Shown here: in pieces, positions 16,293-57,703 of the stretch
Layout: each line of letters starts with the position of its first letter
Position numbering within the stretch: the stretch's first letter is position 1
Assembly: GCA_903843965.1 (NCBI GenBank)
Contig: CAIMRY010000034.1
Location: 1 to 64,000 of the forward strand
DNA: 64,000 bases
Direction of reading: 5' to 3'
Origin: an uncultured delta proteobacterium
GTDB lineage: Bacteria; Desulfobacterota; Desulfovibrionia; Desulfovibrionales; Desulfovibrionaceae
Translations under genes and position numbers: made by a program
Notes under the pieces: model-generated
What the model was told of the DNA's origin: nothing
The model's input: the letters and a program-made list of their open reading frames with translations, nothing else
Databases searched by the model: none

Positions 16293-17636
16293 CTAGCCGC
16301 CGCCGAGCTTGGCCATGAGCTTCTTGGAGTTGACATGGCCCGGGTCGATCTCCAGCGCGGCCTCCACGTACTTCCTGGCGTAATCGTCCTGCTTGGCCAG
16401 GTGATAGCCGTAGGCGATGTTGAAGGCGACCACGGCGGCCGTGCGGTGGAACTCCGGGTCGGCGCGCAGCACCTGCTCGTAGCAGCTAACGGCCATGTGG
16501 TACTGCTGGCCGTCGGCGTAGGCCAGGCCCATGTTGTACAGCACGCGCTCGTCGCCCTCGACCACGGTGAGGGCCTTCTTGTAATTATCGATGGCCTCCT
16601 TCCACTTGCCCTGCTTGCGCAGCGCGATGCCTAGGCGGTTGAAGGTGACCATGTCCTCCTTGGTCAGGTTTTCGCCCTTCATCTCCAGAATCTTGAAATA
16701 ATACTTTTCGGCCAGGGCCGGGGAGGCCTCGCTCACGCTCTCGGCTATGTTGGCCACGATGCGGTCCAGGTAGCCCGTGGCCTCGCGCTGGGCGTTGACG
16801 ATGGCCTCGCCGAAGTAGACATCGGCCCGGTCCATGTCGTTCTTGCGCACGTAGACCTTGCCGATCTCGCACTTGCGCTCGGTGTTCAACGGGCTGATGA
16901 CATCCAGCTTCTTCAAGTACAGCAGATAGTTGTCGTCATCCTCGCCCTGGTGGACGGATGCCAGCTTCTTCAAGGGCTCCAGGTACAGGGTGGCGCCGTC
17001 GTGGGCCCCCTCATAGGCCTTGATGGCCTCCTCGCGCTTGCCCTCGATGAGCAGGGCGTCGCCCATGAGCATGAGCGCCACCGGGCTGTTCCCCTTCACC
17101 TTCAGGATGGCCTGGCTGATCTGCTTGACCTTGGCCGTCTCGCCCAGTTCAAGCAGGCGGCGGGCCTCCTGCACCAGCTGGCTGATCTTGCCCTGGGGCT
17201 TGATGGCCCCGGCGATCTTCTCGATCAGGGTGTCCACGCTCACGGGCTTGGTCAGCACGCAGTCCACGCCGATCTCGTACAGCTGCGACAGGGACTCCTT
17301 GCTGGTCTCCTGGGTCATGACCAGGATCTTGACCTCGGGGAAGGCGCCCTTGAGCCCGCGGATGAAGTCCAGGGTGGGCATGCCGCGCAGCAGGCTGTCG
17401 ACCATGACCAGCACCGGGGACTTGTGCCCCAGGTGGTCGCGCACGCCCCGCAACGCCAGCCCGGAGTCCTGGTAGACCTCCAGACAGTCGGCCTTGATTC
17501 CCAAGATCTTGAGCACGGTCGTGCGCAGGGTGCGCACAAAGAGGGGGTCGTCCGAGAGCATGACCAGAAAGCCGTGCTGGTTCTCCAAAAATTCACGGAG
17601 GTCCTGGTCATACTTTGGGGCGGGTGCTTGCGCCAT
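16293..17636 (-). CDS. Response-regulator receiver domain fused to TPR repeats
   Basis: The 447-aa protein has a CheY-like receiver domain at about 20-135 with an SDD acidic pair, phosphoacceptor Asp in LVMVDSLLRGMP and Lys in VLTKPVS. It is followed by a helical linker and five or six TPR motifs (about 160-445), including KWKEAIDNYKKALTVVEGDE and QYHMAVSCYEQVLRADPEF. No DNA-binding or enzymatic output is present, so it should act by phosphorylation-dependent protein interaction. AGGAGG precedes the ATG at 17636. It is divergent from flagellin, and a motility or chemotaxis adaptor role is possible but unproven. Confidence 0.9.
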   Translation of the reverse strand: MAQAPAPKYDQDLREFLENQHGFLVMLSDDPLFVRTLRTTVLKILGIKADCLEVYQDSGLALRGVRDHLGHKSPVLVMVDSLLRGMPTLDFIRGLKGAFPEVKILVMTQETSKESLSQLYEIGVDCVLTKPVSVDTLIEKIAGAIKPQGKISQLVQEARRLLELGETAKVKQISQAILKVKGNSPVALMLMGDALLIEGKREEAIKAYEGAHDGATLYLEPLKKLASVHQGEDDDNYLLYLKKLDVISPLNTERKCEIGKVYVRKNDMDRADVYFGEAIVNAQREATGYLDRIVANIAESVSEASPALAEKYYFKILEMKGENLTKEDMVTFNRLGIALRKQGKWKEAIDNYKKALTVVEGDERVLYNMGLAYADGQQYHMAVSCYEQVLRADPEFHRTAAVVAFNIAYGYHLAKQDDYARKYVEAALEIDPGHVNSKKLMAKLGGG

Positions 17637-17957
17637 GCTTCAAATCCTCCTGAACCGAGCTGCCTATCCTAATCCGGAGATCCATTCGCTACAATAATCT
17701 CGTATTACAATTTACACATACTGACTCCTCTTGTCGAGACCCGATACGTACAAAACAGACTGCTGTCTCTTCAAGCCCCCATGACAGCGCCCTGACAGGG
17801 CGGCAGGTTTTTCTGTCCCGGCCCTGCCTTCGCACGCATGTCTAGACTTTCTCGTTATCGTCAACACCCCGCATTTACGACTTATTTGCACTGTGGCACG
17901 GCCAGTGCATTTCACGCCGCAAAAGGGAATGTTTTTTCGAACAAGGAGGTTTACGTC
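17637..17957. other. Divergent promoter region between REC-TPR gene and flagellin
   Basis: This 321-bp gap is A+T-richer than the coding sequence. It contains the sigma-54-type flagellin promoter (17894-17909) and the flagellin leader. The minus-strand REC-TPR promoter must also lie here; no clear hexamer pair was identified for it. Confidence 0.6.
17894..17909 (+). promoter_or_regulatory. Sigma-54 (RpoN) promoter of flagellin
   Basis: TGGCACGGCCAGTGCA matches the sigma-54 consensus, with GG and GC dinucleotides separated by exactly 10 bp. Transcription would begin near 17920, leaving a ~38-nt leader that includes the AGGAGG ribosome binding site before the ATG at 17958. Confidence 0.8.
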
Positions 17958-18929
17958 ATGTCTTTGGTGATCAATCACAACTTGATGGCGATGAACGCCG
18001 CACGCAACTTACAGACTTCCTACGGAGCACTGGCGACCTCGACCAGACGCCTATCCTCTGGACTGCGCGTCGGCAACGCCGCAGACGACGCGGCCGGTCT
18101 GGCCATCCGCGAGCTCATGCGCGCGGACATCAAGAGCATGAACCAGGGCATCCGCAACGCCAATGACGGCATTTCGATGATCCAGGTCACCGACGGCGCG
18201 CTCCAGGTCGTCGACGAGAAGCTCATCCGCCTGAAGGAACTGGCCATGCAGGCCTCCACAGGCACGTACTCCTCGGACCAGCGCCTGATGATCGACTCCG
18301 AATACCAGGCCATGTGCTCTGAAATCACGCGTATCTCAAACGCCACCGATTTCAACGGCATCCACATGCTCAACGGGCACCTCTCCGGCGACTCCACCAC
18401 GCACAACGGAACCGGCATCGACTCCGTCGGCGCGCTGAAGATCCACTTCGGAACCGGCAACGACTCCGCCGAGGACTACTACTACGTTTCCATGGGCTGC
18501 TCCACCGCCTCGGCCTTGGGTCTGGGGCACCTTGCCGCCGGCAAGAACGCGTACAGCGACGCTGCGATCGATGCAGAGACCGACCCGACCAAGAAGGCCT
18601 CCATGATCACCGCGAACAACGCCGGCCAGTCCATCTCCACCCAGGAGCTGGCACAGCAGTCGCTGGCGGCCATCAACAACGCCATCATCTCCAAGGACAA
18701 GATCCGCGCCAGCCTGGGCGCCCTGCAAAACCGCCTGCAGAACACCATCACCAACCTCTCCATCCAGGCGGAAAACATGCAGGCCTCGGAGTCGCGCATC
18801 TCTGACGTGGACGTGGCCGAGGAAATGACCGAGTTCACCCGCGAGCAAATCCTGAGCCAGTCCGCAGTAGCCATGCTGGCCCAGGCAAACTCCCTGCCCA
18901 AGATGGCCATGCAGCTCATCCAGGGCTAG
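17958..18929 (+). CDS. fliC: Flagellin
   Basis: The 323-aa protein has the conserved D0/D1 N-terminus (SLVINHNLMAMNAARNLQTS, RLSSGLRVGNAADDAAGLAI) and C-terminus (SRISDVDVAEEMTEFTREQI, AVAMLAQANSLPKMAMQLIQ). These flank a modest variable region (about 155-245). This is the short flagellin type, secreted by the flagellar type III system to build the filament. ATG 17958 has AAGGAGG 10 nt upstream. It has its own sigma-54-type promoter and a strong terminator, so it is a monocistronic, highly expressed gene. Confidence 0.97.
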   Translation: MSLVINHNLMAMNAARNLQTSYGALATSTRRLSSGLRVGNAADDAAGLAIRELMRADIKSMNQGIRNANDGISMIQVTDGALQVVDEKLIRLKELAMQASTGTYSSDQRLMIDSEYQAMCSEITRISNATDFNGIHMLNGHLSGDSTTHNGTGIDSVGALKIHFGTGNDSAEDYYYVSMGCSTASALGLGHLAAGKNAYSDAAIDAETDPTKKASMITANNAGQSISTQELAQQSLAAINNAIISKDKIRASLGALQNRLQNTITNLSIQAENMQASESRISDVDVAEEMTEFTREQILSQSAVAMLAQANSLPKMAMQLIQG

Positions 18930-40729: not shown

Positions 40730-41932
40730 CTAGGCCTCCGGTTCCGACAGCAGGCGCAGCAGGTCCTGGGCGTCGTCGGCCTGGCCCAGGTCGCGCACGT
40801 GCACCCCATCCAGGGCCGCGCCCAGCTCCGCGCCCGACAAGCCCAGCACCAGCAGCCCCGCGCGCTCCAGAAGCGCAAGCTCGGCCCGCGCATCCGGCCC
40901 GTGCACGTGCGCAAAACGCACGCCCTGGGCCAGCAGGGTCTCGTAATTGCCACGCGCCATGGCCTCGTCCAGGAACTCCGCCTGGCGCAGCTGGGCCAGG
41001 AGCGCCTGCCTGCGCCCGGCCAGGGCGCGCCGGAGGTCGAAGCCCCGCTGCCCCGCAGTCCGGAGACCGGAAGTCTGGCCGCAGGTGTCCAGAAAGCCCA
41101 CGGCCCAGGCCAGCAGCCCGGCGATGTCGTCGCGCTCCGTCCCGGGGTTGCGTTCCGGTTCGCCCTGTGCCTGCCGGGCGTCGTCCATCAGGGCGTCATC
41201 CAGCCGGGCGCGGTCCAGCAGGGTTCCGATGAACAGCCGCCGCTCCGGCGTCCAGTCCAGGCGGCAGTGCCGCAGCAGCACGGCCAGGTCCAGCCCCAGC
41301 TCCGTTCCGCAGCGCCGGGCGATGACCGCGCGCAGCTCCGCCGGGGCCGTGGCCTGAGGCCGCAGGCGGCGCACAAAGGAGCGCAGGCCGTCCGTCGGGG
41401 CGGCCAGCTCCGCCTGGTCACCGTCCGGCAACAGCGCCAGCACCCGGCCCGCGCCGCCGGACCGACCCTTGGTCCGACCCTTGGTCCGACCCTTGGTCCG
41501 ACCCTTGGTCCGACCCTTGGTCCGGCCCTTGGACCGGCCCTGGGCCCTGCGCGCGACAAGCCGCTTTGCCAGCTCTTCGGCCTGGGCCTGGTCCAGGTCC
41601 GCCGCCTCCAGCGCGGGCTCCAGCCAGCGCAGCACCTGCGGGTCGGGGCTGAGCAGCAGCGCCACCAGCGGGGCGTGCTCGGCGTCCTCCGGGTCCGCAG
41701 CCAGGCGCGCCAGGGCCGCGTGCGGGTCCGCCTCGCCCAGAGCGGCCAGCACCGTGTCCAGGCTGGCCTGGTCCTGGGGCAGCCCGGCGGCCAGAAGCGC
41801 CTCGATGCGCTCCAACACCATCTGCACAGGGGCCGACCGCCGCGCCGACACCGGTTCTGATCCCGGCTCCGGCTCGCCCGGCTCCGGCTCGCCCGGCTGC
41901 GCCGTCGTGTGCGTTGTCTTGCGCGTTGTCAT
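40730..41932 (-). CDS. Unknown protein with GRTK tandem repeats (400 aa)
   Basis: I do not recognise this family. The protein is soluble, Ala/Leu/Arg-rich and mostly helical. It starts with a repeated acidic segment (GEPEPGEPEPG). It has a helical domain (about 35-130; VLERIEALLAAGLP), a basic linker of GRTK repeats (about 132-158) and a larger C-terminal domain (about 165-400) with RRCGTELGLDLAVLLRHC and DDIAGLLAWAVGFLDTCG. It starts 8 nt after the O-methyltransferase stop and is surely in the same operon. The start-proximal GGGAG is only 1 nt from ATG 41932, so the true start could lie slightly downstream. Confidence 0.65.
   Translation of the reverse strand: MTTRKTTHTTAQPGEPEPGEPEPGSEPVSARRSAPVQMVLERIEALLAAGLPQDQASLDTVLAALGEADPHAALARLAADPEDAEHAPLVALLLSPDPQVLRWLEPALEAADLDQAQAEELAKRLVARRAQGRSKGRTKGRTKGRTKGRTKGRTKGRSGGAGRVLALLPDGDQAELAAPTDGLRSFVRRLRPQATAPAELRAVIARRCGTELGLDLAVLLRHCRLDWTPERRLFIGTLLDRARLDDALMDDARQAQGEPERNPGTERDDIAGLLAWAVGFLDTCGQTSGLRTAGQRGFDLRRALAGRRQALLAQLRQAEFLDEAMARGNYETLLAQGVRFAHVHGPDARAELALLERAGLLVLGLSGAELGAALDGVHVRDLGQADDAQDLLRLLSEPEA
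41457..41540. repeat. 12-bp in-frame tandem repeat (GRTK)
   Basis: About six copies of ttggtccgaccc, the last two degenerate, encode GRTK repeats on the minus strand. Four are identical, which suggests recent slippage. Confidence 0.95.
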
Positions 41933-45843: not shown

Positions 45844-47589
45844 CTACTCTTCCTCGCCGCCGTTCACGCGCAGGGAATTAATGAGCGAGAGCAGAAGCCC
45901 CGGCTTGTCGTGCAGATCGCTGGACTGCAGGTACATCATGCGCTGGCGGAAGCGGTTCTTCAGCGTGGCCAGGTAGGCCGGGCGGTTCTCCACATTGTCC
46001 GGGTGGTACGTGTCGTAGTAGCCGGGCAGCAGGGCCTCCACGCTTTCGCGGGTGGGAATCTGCGCGCCGGGCAAGAGGCTCAGCTGCTCCCACTTGAGCT
46101 GGTCCAGCAATAGCGCCGTCTGGAGCTTCAGCGAAGTCTTGAGCGGAATGGCCCGCAGGTCCACGTCCGAGGCCTTCCAGAAGCCGCTGGAGTTGAAGCA
46201 GTAGCCCACCGCCCCCTGGCTGAAGACCTTGGTGAAGGCCTGCACGTCGCGCCACAGCTCGTACACGCGAAACGGGTTGGCATAGGGCACGAAGACCAGC
46301 TTCTGCAGCTCCTCTTCGGGCACGTTCTCGGCCCGGTTGCGCCGGGTCATCAGGCTGGCGCCCATGGCCACGGCCAGGGCCGGGTCGTTGAAGCGCATCA
46401 AGGGCGGCAGGCAGGAGTCCTTCATCAGCCAGCAGATGATGTCCGGGAAGCCGCAGCGGTTCACGTACGCGCCCAGCAGGTCGCGGTCGAACAGGGCGCG
46501 GCCGTTGGAGTTGCGCAGGTCCTGGCCCAGGGGCAGCACCTTGCCGTCCACCTCGATGAGCCCGTGGTTCATGACCGAGATGATGTAGCGCCAGTCGTCA
46601 TGGCCCAGCGGGCGGGAGTCGGTCTTGTCGAAGAGCGTGGGCTCCCACACGCGGCAGACCTTTTCCGCGCAGTCGATCTGGAAGGCGTCGTCGTGCAGGA
46701 CCACCTTCTTGATCCCGGCGGGCAGGGTGCCGCCGTTGTCCGGGCTGTTGGTGTGCGAGCTTTTGCCCGTGCCGGACAGGCCGAAAAAGGCGATGCTGCG
46801 CTTGCCCGCGCTTTTGTGCGCCGGGTCGGCGCAGGCGGAGAAGTCGATCTCCTTGATGCCGCCGTGGCAGGCGGCCATGCCGAGGCGCATGCCGGATGTC
46901 CAGGCCAGGGTGAGCGTGCCCTTCTTGCGCTCGCCAAAGTAGCGCATTCCGAGGTTGAATATGACGTTGGCCGTCTCGTCCACCAGGGCCAGCTGCGGGC
47001 CTCCGTGGTTGTTGTAGAACGGGTCGGGGTTGCTCCACAGGTTGTCGCCGATGATCAGGATGTCCTGGATGGGCAGCTTGGGGCTCCCCGCGTACTGCTT
47101 GGCCAGCTCGTCAAAGGGCGTAAAGTTGGCCAGCCAGTTGAAGACGTTCACCGCGTCGTCCGCGCCGGCCACCAGGGTGGCCCGGATCATCAGGTCGCGG
47201 TCCAGGCCGAGCACGGCGTGGGCCTTGATGAGCGGGCGCTTCTGGAAGTCGAACATGGCCTCGCGCACGTCGCCCAGGATTTTCTGCTGCTCGCTCAGGG
47301 TCAGCGCGTTGTAGAAACGCCGCGCATTGGCCGAGCGGCCCACGATGCGGCCGTGGCAGTTGTTCAGCACGCGCGCGCCCTTGGGCAAGCCCAGGCGCTT
47401 GGCCGCCGGGGGGTACACGGGCATGTCGGTCAGGGCCACGTCGTGCTGGTCCTGGGCCAGCTCGTAGGCCTCGGCCGCATTGACCAAGAGCACGCGCGGG
47501 TCCAAAATCAGGGTTTCGGCCAGGGCGCGCAGGGGGGGCATCTGGGACAGGTCTGGACCGTAGAACTCGTAGCTCGACTGGCTGGACAT
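45844..47589 (-). CDS. pckA: Phosphoenolpyruvate carboxykinase (ATP-type)
   Basis: The 581-aa enzyme shows the PEPCK P-loop GLSGTGKSSH and metal/nucleotide region VLHDDAFQIDCAEKVC. Upstream core elements include IGDNLWSNPDPFYNNHGGPQ and MRYFGERKKGTLTLAW. It would interconvert oxaloacetate and PEP with ATP/ADP in the cytoplasm. It is slightly longer than classic ATP-PEPCK and has a divergent N-terminal domain, so it belongs to a divergent subgroup. ATG 47589 has GGAGG 7 nt upstream, and a TTGACC-N18-TATTCT promoter lies ~100 nt further up. Confidence 0.88.
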   Translation of the reverse strand: MSSQSSYEFYGPDLSQMPPLRALAETLILDPRVLLVNAAEAYELAQDQHDVALTDMPVYPPAAKRLGLPKGARVLNNCHGRIVGRSANARRFYNALTLSEQQKILGDVREAMFDFQKRPLIKAHAVLGLDRDLMIRATLVAGADDAVNVFNWLANFTPFDELAKQYAGSPKLPIQDILIIGDNLWSNPDPFYNNHGGPQLALVDETANVIFNLGMRYFGERKKGTLTLAWTSGMRLGMAACHGGIKEIDFSACADPAHKSAGKRSIAFFGLSGTGKSSHTNSPDNGGTLPAGIKKVVLHDDAFQIDCAEKVCRVWEPTLFDKTDSRPLGHDDWRYIISVMNHGLIEVDGKVLPLGQDLRNSNGRALFDRDLLGAYVNRCGFPDIICWLMKDSCLPPLMRFNDPALAVAMGASLMTRRNRAENVPEEELQKLVFVPYANPFRVYELWRDVQAFTKVFSQGAVGYCFNSSGFWKASDVDLRAIPLKTSLKLQTALLLDQLKWEQLSLLPGAQIPTRESVEALLPGYYDTYHPDNVENRPAYLATLKNRFRQRMMYLQSSDLHDKPGLLLSLINSLRVNGGEEE

Positions 47590-47720: not shown

Positions 47721-47770
47721 CGGGGGGTGTCAATAGCGCTGCCGATGGGCACGCGCCAGGGTATAAGCTA

Positions 47771-47965
47771 CTACTCAGTGGCGAAGTTGAAGTATGCGGC
47801 AGAAGGCGGAAAAGTCCGCACGTTGACGGACCGGGCCTGTTGGCCCTGCTTACCGTAAACAAAACGGAAGGAGACGACGTTTGGTGCCACTGTTCTCACT
47901 GCTTCGATAGTGCACTGCGCGGCAGCTGCCACGACAGCCGTGCGAAACTCTTTGGGCTTGCTCAT
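47771..47965 (-). CDS. Small protein of the AT-rich island (64 aa)
   Basis: The frame starts MSKPKEFRTAVVAAAAQCTI and its ATG overlaps the stop of the upstream 2TM-GAF gene (ATGA), with GGAG just upstream, so the two are translationally coupled. It is a basic, compact protein with a beta-like second half (VVSFRFVYGKQGQQARSVNV). No signal peptide or known domain is seen. The base composition is less G+C-rich than the chromosome. The tight coupling suggests a partner or inhibitor of the membrane GAF protein. Confidence 0.7.
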   Translation of the reverse strand: MSKPKEFRTAVVAAAAQCTIEAVRTVAPNVVSFRFVYGKQGQQARSVNVRTFPPSAAYFNFATE

Positions 47966-48885
47966 TCGTTTTCTCCAAACTGGCTGATGATGTCGGAGTA
48001 CAGCCTCAAGGGGTGGTAAAGGGAGTCGGCAATACCCGCGCCGATTTCGAAATCCCACGAAGGCAAAAACACATTAGTGCAGGGACTGTCAACCGCCAAA
48101 AAACCGATGCACTGGTCATCTGGGATACCGGTTGCGCCGCGCCGCTGCTGGATGGGCCAGACGACGGCGCTTTTATACGGAAGTTTCCGCGCATCTTCAT
48201 CGGCAGGGTAGCGCTGTGCAAAGGCCGCGTCGCTGGAGGAAAAATATTTCCGCTTTTTACGCAGCTCATCCAGATTGTTTGATAAAAAGCAGCGATTCCC
48301 GGCGTTGTAGTTGGAATACAAATTAACAAAATCGGAGTTATGTTCCAGCCTGTCGGCATTGTGCTCCTGTCGCCAGCGGTCCATCTCATGGCAGAGCGCA
48401 GCGGAGTTCTTATCACGAGCAAGCGCCTGAACATAAAAATTCTCGCCCTGCTCGTAGATGGTCTTTACGCAGGCTCGGCAGGCAGTGCCCGTGAGCATAG
48501 CGAAGAGCCGCTGCACTTCGTTGAGAATATCAGTCAGCATCCTGTTGGCGGTCCCCATGGCCAAGTCCTTATTAACGGGCTCTCCGATCTGCTGCTTGCG
48601 TAAGATATCCAGCAGCATGGAGTGCAGATCGCGGCAGTAGTGTTGGCACATGTGAATGTGCACAGTGATGTCCGCGTAACGCTCCTTGCGAGCGATGGAC
48701 CATTCTCTGAGCAAGGTGCCCAAAAACAACAGGAGAAGGATAAGGCACACTGTCCCGTTGGTTATTAATGCGAGGGCGGATTTGTCAATGGTCAAGAAGG
48801 TCGCCATTAGTGGGAGCAACCCAATGATGCTCGCGCAGGACGCCAGGAGGGTTAGGTGGTTGCCAACGCTGCGAAGATCTCTCAT
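47962..48885 (-). CDS. Two-TM membrane protein with cytoplasmic GAF-like domain
   Basis: The ~307-aa protein starts at ATG 48885 (GAGG 9 nt upstream; TTG 48900 also in frame). Two hydrophobic helices occupy about residues 10-30 and 38-58 (HLTLLASCASIIGLLPLMA, GTVCLILLLLFLGTLL). A helical stretch follows, then a GAF-like domain (about 125-300) with ACRACVKTIYEQGENFYVQA, PYKSAVVWPIQ, CIGFLAVDSP and IGAGIADSLYHPL. Composition and codon choice are clearly A+T-richer than the flanks, implying recent transfer. It probably senses a small ligand at the inner membrane. No enzymatic domain is visible. Confidence 0.8.
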   Translation of the reverse strand: MRDLRSVGNHLTLLASCASIIGLLPLMATFLTIDKSALALITNGTVCLILLLLFLGTLLREWSIARKERYADITVHIHMCQHYCRDLHSMLLDILRKQQIGEPVNKDLAMGTANRMLTDILNEVQRLFAMLTGTACRACVKTIYEQGENFYVQALARDKNSAALCHEMDRWRQEHNADRLEHNSDFVNLYSNYNAGNRCFLSNNLDELRKKRKYFSSSDAAFAQRYPADEDARKLPYKSAVVWPIQQRRGATGIPDDQCIGFLAVDSPCTNVFLPSWDFEIGAGIADSLYHPLRLYSDIISQFGENE

Positions 48886-48937
48886 CGGGCGGTGCCTCAA
48901 GATCAGGTTGGACTATGGGCAGTAACGATACCGCATG

Positions 48938-48955
48938 TAGAATATCAACATTCTA
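48938..48955. promoter_or_regulatory. Operator-like palindrome in the island promoter
   Basis: TAGAAT-atcaac-ATTCTA is a perfect 6-6-6 inverted repeat covering the -10 side of the spacer of the island promoter. A TCAACATT motif is also directly repeated at 48946-48953 and 48963-48970. A repressor bound here would block RNA polymerase. Confidence 0.6.
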
Positions 48956-48966
48956 GACTATGTCAA
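48939..48966 (-). promoter_or_regulatory. Sigma-70 promoter of the AT-rich island
   Basis: TTGACA (48966-48961) and TATTCT (48944-48939) on the minus strand are separated by 16 bp, placing the start near 48931, about 46 nt before the 2TM-GAF ATG. The -35 is a perfect consensus. Confidence 0.7.
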
Positions 48967-49029
48967 CATTATTCTTTGCGTTTGCGCCTCGCAAGCGGCT
49001 AGAGTAGCCGACACGAGTCTCACCCGCCT

Positions 49030-55086: not shown

Positions 55087-56454
55087 TTATCCGCCCAGTT
55101 CCTTAATCCACCGGGCCAGGGGTTCTTCCACAAGTTTGCGGATTTCCGCCAGGCGGGCCTCGCTCTCGGCCTCGAAGCGCAGCACCAGCGAGGGCGAGGT
55201 GTTGGAGGCGCGCACCAGCGCCCAACCATCGGGAAAGACCAGCCGCGCTCCGTCGTCGCCCTCCAGGGTGTAGAGCTTGGCGAACTCGGCCCGCGCGCGC
55301 TCGGCCACCTGGAACTTGGCGTGCTCGGCGCAGTCCACGCGCAGCTCCGGGGTGACGAAGGTTTTGGGCCAGTCGGACAGCAGCGTGGACAGCGCCCCCG
55401 TGGCCCGGGACACGATCTCCACCAGGCGCAGGGCCGCGTACGGCGCGTCGTCAAAGCCGAAGTAGCGGTCGGCGAAGAACATGTGCCCGCTCATTTCTCC
55501 GGCCAGGGCCGCCTTTTCGTTCAGCAGGCGGTCCTTGATGAGCGAGTGCCCGGTGGCGGACATGATGGGCCGTCCGCCGTGTTTGGCGATGTCGGCAAAG
55601 AGCAGGTGCGAGCATTTGACGTCGCCGATGATGGCGCTGCCGGGCTTTTCGGCCAGCACCTGCCGGGCGAAGAGGGCCAGCAGCCGGTCGCCGTGGATGA
55701 CCTGGGCCTTTTCGTCAACCGCGCCGATGCGGTCGCCGTCGCCGTCGAGCCCGATGCCCAGCTCGGCCCCATGTTGCAACACCGCAGCCTTGAGCGCCAC
55801 AAGGTTCTTCTCCTCCACCGGGTCCGGGTGGTGGTTGGGAAAGCGGCCGTCGGGCTCGCAGTAAAGCGCAATGACCTCGGCCCCGGCGCGCTCCAGCAGC
55901 GCCTTGGTCACCAGCCCGGCCGCGCCGTTGCCGCCGTCGAGCACCACCTTGACCCGGCGGGAGACCCGCGCCAGGCCGCTTAAGGTCTCCAGGTAGCTGG
56001 GCTCGATGTCATGGGCCGTGGCCAGGCCCCGGCCCGCCGGGAAATCGCGCGCGGCCAACAGGCGGGCCACCTCCTGGATCTCGCCGGAGTGGATGGTGCT
56101 TCTGCCCGCCCAGATCTTGAAACCGTTGTACTGGGCCGGGTTGTGGCTGGCGGTGATCATGACCCCGGCGTCGTAGTCCAGGTGCCGGATGGCGAAATAG
56201 CACACCGGAGTGGGCACCATGCCCAGGAACAGCACATCCACGCCGGTGCTTGTCAGCCCGGCCACCAGGCGCTCCTGGAAGTCCGGGGAGGTCAGGCGGC
56301 AGTCGCGCCCGACCACGGCCCGGCGCGACCCGCGCGCCAAAAAATACGCTCCGCAGGCGCGGCCCAGCTCCTCCACCCAGTCGGCATCGAAATCCTGGTC
56401 CACAATGCCCCGGATGTCATAGGCGCGGAAAACGCGCTGCGTGTCCTGGTCCAT
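55087..56454 (-). CDS. Phosphomannomutase/phosphoglucomutase
   Basis: The 455-aa enzyme has all alpha-D-phosphohexomutase motifs: FRAYDIRG at the N-terminus, phosphoserine loop ITASHNPAQYNGFK, Mg-binding LDGDGDRIGAVDE, sugar-binding GEMSGHMFF and phosphate-binding RASNTSPSLVLRF. It interconverts hexose 6- and 1-phosphates for polysaccharide, LPS or glycogen synthesis. Length fits the AlgC/ManB group. A short GAGAGG motif lies before the ATG at 56454. It is divergent from the CI-like repressor across a ~520-bp A+T-rich gap. Confidence 0.95.
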   Translation of the reverse strand: MDQDTQRVFRAYDIRGIVDQDFDADWVEELGRACGAYFLARGSRRAVVGRDCRLTSPDFQERLVAGLTSTGVDVLFLGMVPTPVCYFAIRHLDYDAGVMITASHNPAQYNGFKIWAGRSTIHSGEIQEVARLLAARDFPAGRGLATAHDIEPSYLETLSGLARVSRRVKVVLDGGNGAAGLVTKALLERAGAEVIALYCEPDGRFPNHHPDPVEEKNLVALKAAVLQHGAELGIGLDGDGDRIGAVDEKAQVIHGDRLLALFARQVLAEKPGSAIIGDVKCSHLLFADIAKHGGRPIMSATGHSLIKDRLLNEKAALAGEMSGHMFFADRYFGFDDAPYAALRLVEIVSRATGALSTLLSDWPKTFVTPELRVDCAEHAKFQVAERARAEFAKLYTLEGDDGARLVFPDGWALVRASNTSPSLVLRFEAESEARLAEIRKLVEEPLARWIKELGG

Positions 56455-56977
56455 GATCCTCTCTGCTGGCTTGAACCCGCGCAGGGCGGCGGGCCGTTGT
56501 GTTTCCTGCCATGCATGCGTTTTGCCGCACGCTGTGGTTTACAGGTCGCAATGGTAACACAACACGTCCCAGTGGGGAAGACGCCCACAACCACCCGCAA
56601 CCCGGCCCCCCCTGGTTTCTCGCATCTTGCAGCATTTGCTGATGAATACGGCCAGAAACCCTGGCGTAGCCAGAGTCGATTGGTGAAGGCTACTGCACAA
56701 CCGGCCTACTTAGTTTTGAATACCACGTATTGACAGGAAGGCAGAATGATATAAATGACCTCCACCATTCTAACCGTTCAAACATACACTACGAATATGC
56801 AGCAGAACAGTCTTATTAGCACTCGCCAGGCATAAGAATTTGTTTCTACGTTTATGCTTGACGCCGACGACGGCTTGTACTTATTATTAGCTCAGCAAGT
56901 TTCGTGGTTGCACGTATTACTAAAGCAATCTGATTTACTGCCAAACGATATCGGCAGAACAATATGGAGGTTTTACG
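56455..56977. other. A+T-rich regulatory gap upstream of the CI-like repressor
   Basis: No gene is supported in this ~520-bp region. From about 56690 onward it becomes markedly A+T-rich. It contains a promoter-like TTGACG-N18-TATTAT (56858-56887) on the plus strand and a TTGACA at 56730-56735 without a well-spaced -10. No clear repeated operator for the repressor was identified. Confidence 0.5.
56858..56887 (+). promoter_or_regulatory. Probable sigma-70 promoter of the CI-like repressor
   Basis: TTGACG at 56858-56863 and TATTAT at 56882-56887 are separated by 18 bp. The leader to ATG 56978 would be about 84 nt. Confidence 0.45.
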
Positions 56978-57703
56978 ATGGCAAAGCTCAAGAAAAAATG
57001 CGATGAGCGCCTTGAACAGTGGTTCGAGGAGGCGATGGATCGCATCAAGAAAGCCACTGGCGCACGGACCCAGGTTCAGCTCGCTGATGTCCTGGAGGTC
57101 CGCCAGTCCAGCATTTCAGACGCCAAGAGGCGCTGCTCCGTCCCGTCCGACTGGTTTTTGAAGCTGTACCGCAGCCATGGCTTGAACCCCAACTGGCTTT
57201 CCGACGGCCACGAACCTGTGTACCTGAATGCGGCCAAGGGCCAGGTCAGCGCCGAGAATCTCCTGCGGGAGACCCCGGCGGCCTATGGCCGCACCCACGC
57301 GCGCGGCCGCGTCGTCCCTGTCTCATCCATGGCCGGCGCCGGGACCGACCCCGCCACCTGGCAGCCCCTGCCGGTGGAGGACCTGACCATCCCGGAGACC
57401 TTCTTCCGCCCGAACATGCAGGTCTTGCGCGTGGACTCCGCAGGCATGGAGCCCATTGTCCTGCGCGGCGCCTTTGTCGGCGTGGACCAGGACCAGCGCC
57501 AGCACCCGGACGGCGACCTGTGCGCGGTGCACTTCCCGCACCAGGGTCTGCTCATCCGCCGCGTGTACTACCAGGACGGCCAGTTCGTGCTCAAGGCCGA
57601 GGACAAGGCCCACGCCGACCTGCACGTGCCCGCCGCCGAGATGTCCGCCCGCACCATCGGTCGCGTCATCTGGGTCATCCAGAGCCTGTCCCAGCAGATC
57701 TAG
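56978..57703 (+). CDS. CI-like repressor with S24/LexA-type C-terminal fold
   Basis: The 241-aa protein has a phage CI-type helix-turn-helix domain (about 10-75; TQVQLADVLEVRQSSISDAK) and a C-terminal S24-like domain (about 105-235; VPVSSMAGAG, LRVDSAGMEPIVLRGAFVGV). In cleavable relatives the residue before MEP is the catalytic Ser and the later segment carries a Lys; here they read Gly (GMEP) and Arg (LIRRVYY). Autocleavage is therefore doubtful. GGAGG lies 7 nt before ATG 56978. A strong terminator follows. No phage structural genes are nearby, so it is a domesticated or orphan regulator. Confidence 0.85.
   Translation: MAKLKKKCDERLEQWFEEAMDRIKKATGARTQVQLADVLEVRQSSISDAKRRCSVPSDWFLKLYRSHGLNPNWLSDGHEPVYLNAAKGQVSAENLLRETPAAYGRTHARGRVVPVSSMAGAGTDPATWQPLPVEDLTIPETFFRPNMQVLRVDSAGMEPIVLRGAFVGVDQDQRQHPDGDLCAVHFPHQGLLIRRVYYQDGQFVLKAEDKAHADLHVPAAEMSARTIGRVIWVIQSLSQQI

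What the first reader, a model, noticed from the sequence alone, without database searches (positions are those of the whole stretch)
47771..48966. AT-rich two-gene island: 2TM-GAF protein coupled to a 64-aa protein
Two genes overlapping by ATGA (a ~307-aa two-helix membrane protein with a cytoplasmic GAF-like domain and a 64-aa partner) sit in sequence clearly A+T-richer than the G+C-rich flanks, behind their own consensus promoter. Nothing enzymatic is visible. A membrane ligand sensor with a tiny coupled partner, recently acquired, is a plausible defence, toxin-antitoxin or stress module that I cannot assign to a named system.
Basis: partly seen in the sequence, partly recalled or inferred. 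Interest (0 to 1): 0.75.

Follow-up and report, generated by a model that had tools for sequence, protein, structure and literature searches.

The report
Mobile membrane-GAF gene plus small partner
A compact two-gene island, coding for a membrane-anchored GAF-domain protein and a tiny coupled protein, has been inserted between two conserved genes of this bacterium; relatives of the large protein, often with a small gene behind them, turn up sporadically in distant bacteria, and the pair looks like an undescribed toxin-antitoxin or antiviral-type module, although no activity has been tested.

Summary
A 307-aa two-TM protein (47962-48885, -) and a 64-aa protein (47771-47965, -) overlap by ATGA behind a good promoter in a 1.2-kb A+T-rich stretch (54% G+C against 69%). 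Sister genomes show acquisition: 0 of 5 sister loci holding both flanking genes carry it, and the insert is just these two genes. The cytoplasmic domain is GAF-like (profile hit E 9e-5). Relatives are rare and span Desulfobacterota, Actinomycetota and an Azospirillum plasmid. A small ORF follows in 15 of 17 loci (8.2 expected by chance). In four loci, two phyla, the small proteins are clearly homologous (a fifth marginally); one was found blind behind a transposase-like gene. The window's own 64-aa protein is a partner by position, overlap and ribosome site, not by detectable homology. Four of 14 loci lie near restriction or BREX genes (controls: at least 1 of 10): suggestive only; the window's neighbours were not scanned. 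Closest precedent: the membrane-helix plus GAF toxin toxFtsL-D9 (PMC10440598), whose Panacea antitoxin is absent here. Most likely a membrane toxin or effector restrained by a small partner; function untested. A new variant of a known kind.

The parts
47724..49029. inserted island of at most 1.3 kb between a long gene (45844-47589, PEP-carboxykinase-like by recall only; no PDB match) and a radical-SAM, ELP3-like gene
   Evidence: absent from 5 of 5 sister loci that hold both flanking genes; A+T-rich segment 47762-48983; boundaries read by eye against L073-L075
47962..48885 (-). 307-aa 2TM-GAF membrane protein
   Evidence: relatives
48793..48849 (-). TM segment 1 (residues 13-31)
   Evidence: hydropathy 2.11; helix 4-30 in the model
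48721..48777 (-). TM segment 2 (residues 37-55), continuing into a long helix (36-99)
   Evidence: hydropathy 2.48
47974..48570 (-). GAF-like cytoplasmic domain (about residues 106-304)
   Evidence: profile A7 hits a PDB sensor-kinase chain, E 9.4e-5; VIA-align top row a GAF domain, Z 10.9, rmsd 3.5, 133 aligned; much of the stretch 143-239 under pLDDT 50
47771..47965 (-). 64-aa small partner, predicted three strands (18-27, 30-37, 44-50)
   Evidence: (mean pLDDT 58.8, pTM 0.41, single sequence)
47973..47976 (-). GGAG ribosome-binding site of the small gene, inside the end of the GAF gene
48939..48966 (-). sigma-70-like promoter TTGACA-16-TATTCT, with a TAGAAT/ATTCTA palindrome over the -10
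   Evidence: the palindrome is not unusual in shuffles (0.23)

Best explanation
The island is a self-contained, horizontally moved two-protein conflict module. The 2TM-GAF protein is a membrane-anchored toxic effector: a TM hairpin and a signalling helix carried on a cytoplasmic GAF sensor. When active it damages the membrane or the division machinery. The small beta-rich protein, coupled to it in translation, holds it inactive, probably by binding the GAF domain or the helix. Stress or phage infection that removes or mimics the small protein, or changes a GAF ligand, releases the effector. Shown here: gene structure, overlap, acquisition as a unit, GAF-like domain, sporadic occurrence in distant bacteria with a small gene behind it in most loci, fast divergence at one slot. 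Inferred: toxicity, restraint by the small protein, trigger, defence role.
For: Acquired as two genes only. A downstream ORF of 50-110 aa starts within -40..+130 nt in 15 of 17 loci (8.2 expected, P 2e-4) and within -8..0 nt in 7 of 17 (0.83 expected, P 6e-6); the ORFs counted for L042 and L071 in the first test and for L026 in the second are not the assigned partners. Small proteins of L021, L027, L044 and L042 recover each other in leave-one-out searches (E 5e-10 to 1e-4, first in own locus), L043 marginally (E 0.6, first in own locus); a 3-sequence profile found the L042 partner behind a transposase-like gene, E 2e-4 among 2701 ORFs. In 14 whole genomes the matches of the small-protein profile under 1e-10 are only these five partners, which are also its training rows. 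At one slot (L025/L026) flanking proteins are 78% and 62% identical but the GAF proteins 26%. L027 has a broken GAF gene and an intact small gene, as when a toxin decays before its antitoxin. Precedent: Gelidibacter mesophilus toxFtsL-D9, a 281-aa membrane-helix plus GAF toxin that causes filamentation, with a collapse of the culture suggestive of lysis (PMC10440598, section 11 part 1). R-M or BREX genes near 4 of 14 loci.
Against: No toxicity or defence data exist. The window's 64-aa protein is not found by the small-protein profile (rank 385 of 1909), nor are the partners of L032 and L025 (E over 100) or, convincingly, L005 and L026 (E 42 and 22). L070 has an intact GAF gene with no partner, L071 only a 40-aa ORF, L029 none. 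Two TM segments are seen in 9 of 15 members, one in two, three in two, none in L071 and L029 (L029 and the L027 piece are partial). The larger gene comes first, unlike most type II TA operons (recalled). Defence genes were not sought by profile beside the window's island. The defence signal is not significant, and the test and control ORF sets were chosen differently. Homology to the D9 toxin could not be tested.
Confidence: 0.42

Rival explanations
1. Ligand-gated 2TM effector: the GAF domain binds a nucleotide or other small ligand made elsewhere in the cell (as in Panoptes or CBASS effectors), ligand binding or loss opens the TM hairpin, and the small protein is an accessory sensor or chaperone rather than an antitoxin.
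For: The 2TM plus soluble sensor layout resembles S-2TM-beta effectors (PMC12657218, passages); GAF domains are named among nucleotide-binding parts of conflict systems (PMC7159879, passages); SLATT_6 matches weakly in 2 of 13 members, best E 0.012; GAF genes without a clear partner exist (L070, L071).
Against: No nucleotide synthetase in the island; SLATT_6 below its cut-off; no ligand motif was tested.
Confidence: 0.25
2. Membrane-bound sensor or regulator without toxic action, for example an accessory signalling adaptor passing a redox or metabolite signal; the small protein is its output partner.
For: GAF is a common sensory domain (recalled); nothing enzymatic was recognised; by eye the window neighbourhood looks housekeeping, though it was not scanned for defence genes.
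Against: Sporadic distribution (about 1% of sampled genomes), small A+T-rich islands, fast divergence at a fixed slot and broken copies fit a conflict module better.
Confidence: 0.2
3. The 2TM-GAF gene is real cargo but the window's 64-aa frame is a chance or unrelated ORF.
For: Not recovered by the partner profile; an ORF of this length nearby is expected by chance in this sequence (0.70); single-sequence model with pLDDT 58.8.
Against: ATGA overlap (0.07 by chance), GGAG site, coding-like codon-position G+C, inside the inserted DNA, positional equivalents in most relatives, strands predicted as the motif of the other small proteins would suggest.
Confidence: 0.13

Closest known systems
toxFtsL-D9:PanA toxin-antitoxin (Gelidibacter mesophilus; NetFlax, PMC10440598)
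   Same: About 280-310 aa protein with a membrane helix and a GAF domain, in a two-gene pair with a dedicated partner
   Different: The partner there is a Panacea domain protein; here it is a 64-aa beta-rich protein with no Panacea match. Sequence homology to D9 could not be tested.
Panoptes OptE / Cap15 (S-2TM-beta effectors, PMC12657218)
   Same: Two TM helices joined to a cytoplasmic sensor domain, two-gene operon
   Different: Soluble domain is GAF-like, not a beta barrel; no nucleotide synthetase partner
SLATT 2TM effectors (PF18169)
   Same: Two TM helices, predicted pore-forming conflict effectors (PMC7159879, passages)
   Different: Matches only 2 of 13 members at E 0.012 or worse, under the cut-off
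Small beta-rich proteins with Pfam names
   Same: Short beta-rich protein
   Different: No Pfam family reaches its cut-off for any of 11 small proteins tried

Membership tests
GAF domain superfamily | GAF fold / profile similarity | tested here: met
   Profile A7 against PDB E 9.4e-5 to 6uv8, a sensor histidine kinase (its GAF nature recalled); 6 of the top 8 VIA rows are named GAF domains (the other two are DosP), Z 9.4-10.9, on a low-confidence model. Foldseek alone gave nothing under 0.001, and Pfam no family for the window protein.
toxFtsL-D9:PanA TA | Panacea (PF13274) antitoxin beside the toxin | tested here: not met
   No PF13274 match in the window's genome; 44 of 218 genomes have one. 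Among 208 ORFs of the 30 Panacea loci fetched the GAF profiles' best match is E 0.0018 (11.1 bits), to a frame that spans the Panacea match itself; the next is E 0.46
toxFtsL-D9:PanA TA | sequence homology to the D9 toxin | not testable with these tools
   D9 sequence not held; only the paper's description was read
type II toxin-antitoxin | toxic protein neutralised by its partner protein | not testable with these tools
   needs expression assays
type II toxin-antitoxin | two adjacent, coupled genes moving as a unit | tested here: met
   for the window:
Panoptes/CBASS | nucleotide second-messenger synthetase in the operon | tested here: not met
   the island holds only two genes
SLATT (PF18169) | Pfam gathering score 27.1 bits | tested here: not met
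   2 of 13 members, best E 0.012; 13.1 bits in the first member
known defence systems (PADLOC-DB 2.0.0) | match to a PADLOC model | tested here: not met
   0 families for both window proteins at E up to 5

The most novel reading that the evidence does not exclude
An undescribed family of minimal two-gene antiphage or toxin-antitoxin modules, spread across phyla as 1.1-1.8 kb islands without recognisable mobility genes, in which a membrane GAF effector is controlled by a dedicated, very fast evolving beta-rich mini-protein.
Probability: 0.45. Interest if true: 0.75.

Novelty: new variant of a known kind. Interest (0 to 1): 0.6.

Why it matters
If right, it adds a membrane-GAF effector with a new kind of small partner to toxin-antitoxin and defence modules, joins the one validated membrane-GAF toxin that I found in print to a wider cross-phylum theme, and gives a very small unit that can be tested directly. 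It is also a clean case of a two-gene cargo inserted without recognisable mobility genes, with empty sites in sister genomes.

Tried and rejected
Scans of genome contigs and viral contigs with the window protein alone found no relative, nor did viral scans with alignments. tblastn of phages: no match for the window protein and L032, four at E 3 for L044. Plasmids gave only the Azospirillum record and one match at E 0.4. PHROGs: one match at E 0.053 in 8 proteins. G033 (E 0.005) lies in a frame rich in CxxCH, cytochrome-like by eye, and was rejected. G362 and G025 (E about 0.0015) were not followed. TauE, LPG_synthase_TM and other single-member Pfam hits were not taken as kinship.

BFVD best match: Gordonia phage Finkle membrane protein (E 0.014, probability 0.92), not confirmed by sequence; a lead only.

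Defence-gene test: 74 of 201 listed neighbour ORFs, picked by eye from 14 loci, none from the window, were scanned (25 of 158 families shown); 20 proteins were scanned one by one. R-M/BREX hits under 1e-20: L021, L023, L032, L042, so at least 4 of 14. Control: 124 ORFs of 150 aa or more from 10 of 14 fetched regions (25 of 122 families shown): type II and IIG methyltransferase and DISARM models down to 3.6e-32, one member each, whether one protein or several not resolved, so at least 1 of 10; mad2, mad3, capP and MzaA also match there under 1e-20. L023 also has DUF3800- and RhuM-type PADLOC candidates, not counted; RtcR and PD-Lambda-2 rows were not counted either. Selection differed, so no significance is claimed.

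The palindrome over the -10 is not unusual in shuffles. The only tRNA in the window is at 40852-40940. No convincing target-site duplication or terminal repeat was seen. The tree is too divergent to date transfers: 1 of 9 inner branches is well supported, and one origin per group is not excluded. Four paper searches (listings of 20, 6, 12 and 12 papers) show no description of this pair; I read passages of three papers and one section part. PDB searches for gene labels: radical-SAM gene ELP3-like; none for the 45844-47589 gene or the L042 transposase-like frame, whose names are by eye; E 0.006 to a methyltransferase for the L077 frame. One search printed only the tail of its hit lists; one search shows the heads.

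Full report
What is there. On the minus strand a 307-aa gene (47962-48885) is followed, with an ATGA overlap, by a 64-aa gene (47771-47965). A TTGACA-16-TATTCT promoter lies at 48966-48939. The stretch is 53-54% G+C, against 64-75% in the windows next to it. The large protein has two hydrophobic segments near its N-terminus, a long helix and a GAF-like domain. Pfam, PADLOC, NCBIfam and PHROGs give neither protein a match over a cut-off or better than E 0.05.

It was acquired as a unit. The flanking radical-SAM gene (ELP3-like) has a match in 15 of 15 genomes of the genus. Of 12 loci read, the window's own included, 5 sister loci also hold the gene on the other side (45844-47589; PEP-carboxykinase-like by recall only) within the 1.5 kb fetched. 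In 3 of these (L073-L075) the two genes are about 150-200 bp apart; in 2 (L076, L077) the gap is about 880-900 bp and holds a methyltransferase-like frame; none of the 5 has the GAF island. By eye, left homology ends at about 47723 and right homology resumes near the radical-SAM stop at about 49030, so the insert is at most 1.3 kb: promoter plus the two genes. The GAF gene is in 1 of the 7 genus members listed in the class search.

Relatives are rare and scattered. Profile searches found it in 6 of 395 genomes of the phylum (two of these unverified, E about 0.0015), 2 of 63 and 4 of 18 in two clades, 4 of 394 in the class of Antrihabitans, 2 of 179 in the window's class and 2 of 296 in the phylum of Antrihabitans. 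These counts include already known positives. Named relatives are a Desulfomonile MAG and Antrihabitans stalactiti and the Azospirillum argentinense plasmid p1. The window's genome shares its phylum with the Desulfomonile genome; the name Desulfobacterota is recalled. In the 9 of 15 loci where the gene is at least 8 points poorer in G+C than its flanks, the A+T-rich segment is 1.1-1.8 kb, about the size of the module; in the other 6 the contrast is 1-6 points.

GAF domain. The 13-row profile hits a sensor-kinase chain in the PDB at E 9.4e-5. The AlphaFold model of the window protein is poor in the middle (mean pLDDT 57.7, pTM 0.55), and Foldseek gave no hit under 0.001. In the VIA-align second look, 6 of the top 8 rows are named GAF domains (3cit_B: Z 10.9, rmsd 3.5, 133 aligned), the other two are DosP, and helical proteins such as syntaxins follow from row 13. 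Two TM segments are seen in 9 of 15 members, one in two, three in two and none in L071 and L029.

The small partner. Of 17 loci, 15 have an ORF of 50-110 aa starting within -40..+130 nt of the GAF stop (8.2 expected from shuffles, P 2e-4), and 7 have one starting within -8..0 nt (0.83 expected, P 6e-6). The ORFs counted for L042 and L071 in the first test and L026 in the second are not the assigned partners. An earlier version with a 45-aa minimum gave 14 of 15 loci, 8.4 expected. Ten of 11 assigned starts shown have a purine-rich ribosome site close upstream; for L005 the position given was off (some starts were chosen with this in view). A profile from three small proteins (L021, L027, L044) picked the L042 partner blind, E 2e-4 among 2701 ORFs; it sits behind a transposase-like gene that separates it from its GAF gene. 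Leave-one-out searches recover L021, L027, L044 and L042 (E 5e-10 to 1e-4) and marginally L043 (E 0.6, first in its locus), but not L026 (E 22), L005 (42), L025, L032 or the window (over 100). The shared pattern is two strands around a glycine turn ending in an arginine, in four of the five behind an aromatic residue; the window protein is predicted, at low confidence, as three strands. The window partner is therefore supported by position, coupling and predicted shape, not by sequence.

Tempo and context. At one slot shared by two genomes the flanking proteins are 78% and 62% identical but the GAF proteins only 26%; L021 and L027 are 70% identical in the GAF C-part and 44% in the small protein. 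BrxA, BrxB and BrxC lie from about 3 kb upstream of L021's gene; a type II methyltransferase is divergent next to L042's; a restriction-enzyme match (E 4.5e-10) and a type II methyltransferase lie within about 5 kb of L032's, and a type I restriction-enzyme frame, cut by the end of the stretch, about 7.6 kb from L023's. That is at least 4 of 14 loci scanned, against at least 1 of 10 control regions: suggestive, not significant. The window's neighbours were not in that scan.

Mechanism. The best functional precedent is toxFtsL-D9 of Gelidibacter mesophilus, a 281-aa toxin with a membrane helix and a GAF domain whose expression in E. coli causes filamentation and a late collapse suggestive of lysis, neutralised by a Panacea protein (PMC10440598; section 11, part 1 read). 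I could not compare sequences. No Panacea match is in the window's genome, and the 30 Panacea loci fetched show no convincing member of this family, so this is not filed as a D9:PanA system. My reading is a membrane toxin or effector restrained by its small partner (0.42). A ligand-gated 2TM effector (0.25), a harmless sensor (0.20) and a spurious 64-aa frame (0.13) remain open.

Verdict. The finding is real and more than an annotation gap: an acquired, sporadic, fast-diverging two-gene module. Its function is inferred, not shown.

Noticed in passing
L076 and L077, gap between the two genes that flank the island in the window: Two sister genomes carry a methyltransferase-like frame (217-220 aa; weak PDB match, E 0.006) at the spot where the window has the island, with G+C of 0.67 over the gap.
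   Followed up: partly
L070:8487-9765: A distant 2TM-GAF relative in the same bacterial family (gene 41% G+C, locus 65%) is the only large frame of an A+T-rich segment between an isocitrate-dehydrogenase-like gene (by eye) and a tRNA-Asp, with no small partner.
   Followed up: partly
L042:9152-10711: A transposase-like gene (by eye; no PDB match) lies between the GAF gene and its small partner, both left open; the sequence around the GAF stop is repeated on both sides.
   Followed up: partly
window 48939-48966: A TAGAAT-6nt-ATTCTA palindrome overlaps the island promoter's -10; neither gene looks like a DNA-binding regulator. Shuffles reach it in 23%.
   Followed up: partly
window 17000-18500 and 56000-57500: Two other G+C dips (0.57-0.59); at the second lies a frame with a regulator-like N-terminus (56978-57703, by eye). 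Origin not worked out.
   Followed up: partly
BFVD entry A0A9E7NJ10: A Gordonia phage Finkle membrane protein is the best viral structural match to the low-confidence model (E 0.014); possibly a phage-borne relative, not confirmed by sequence.
   Followed up: partly
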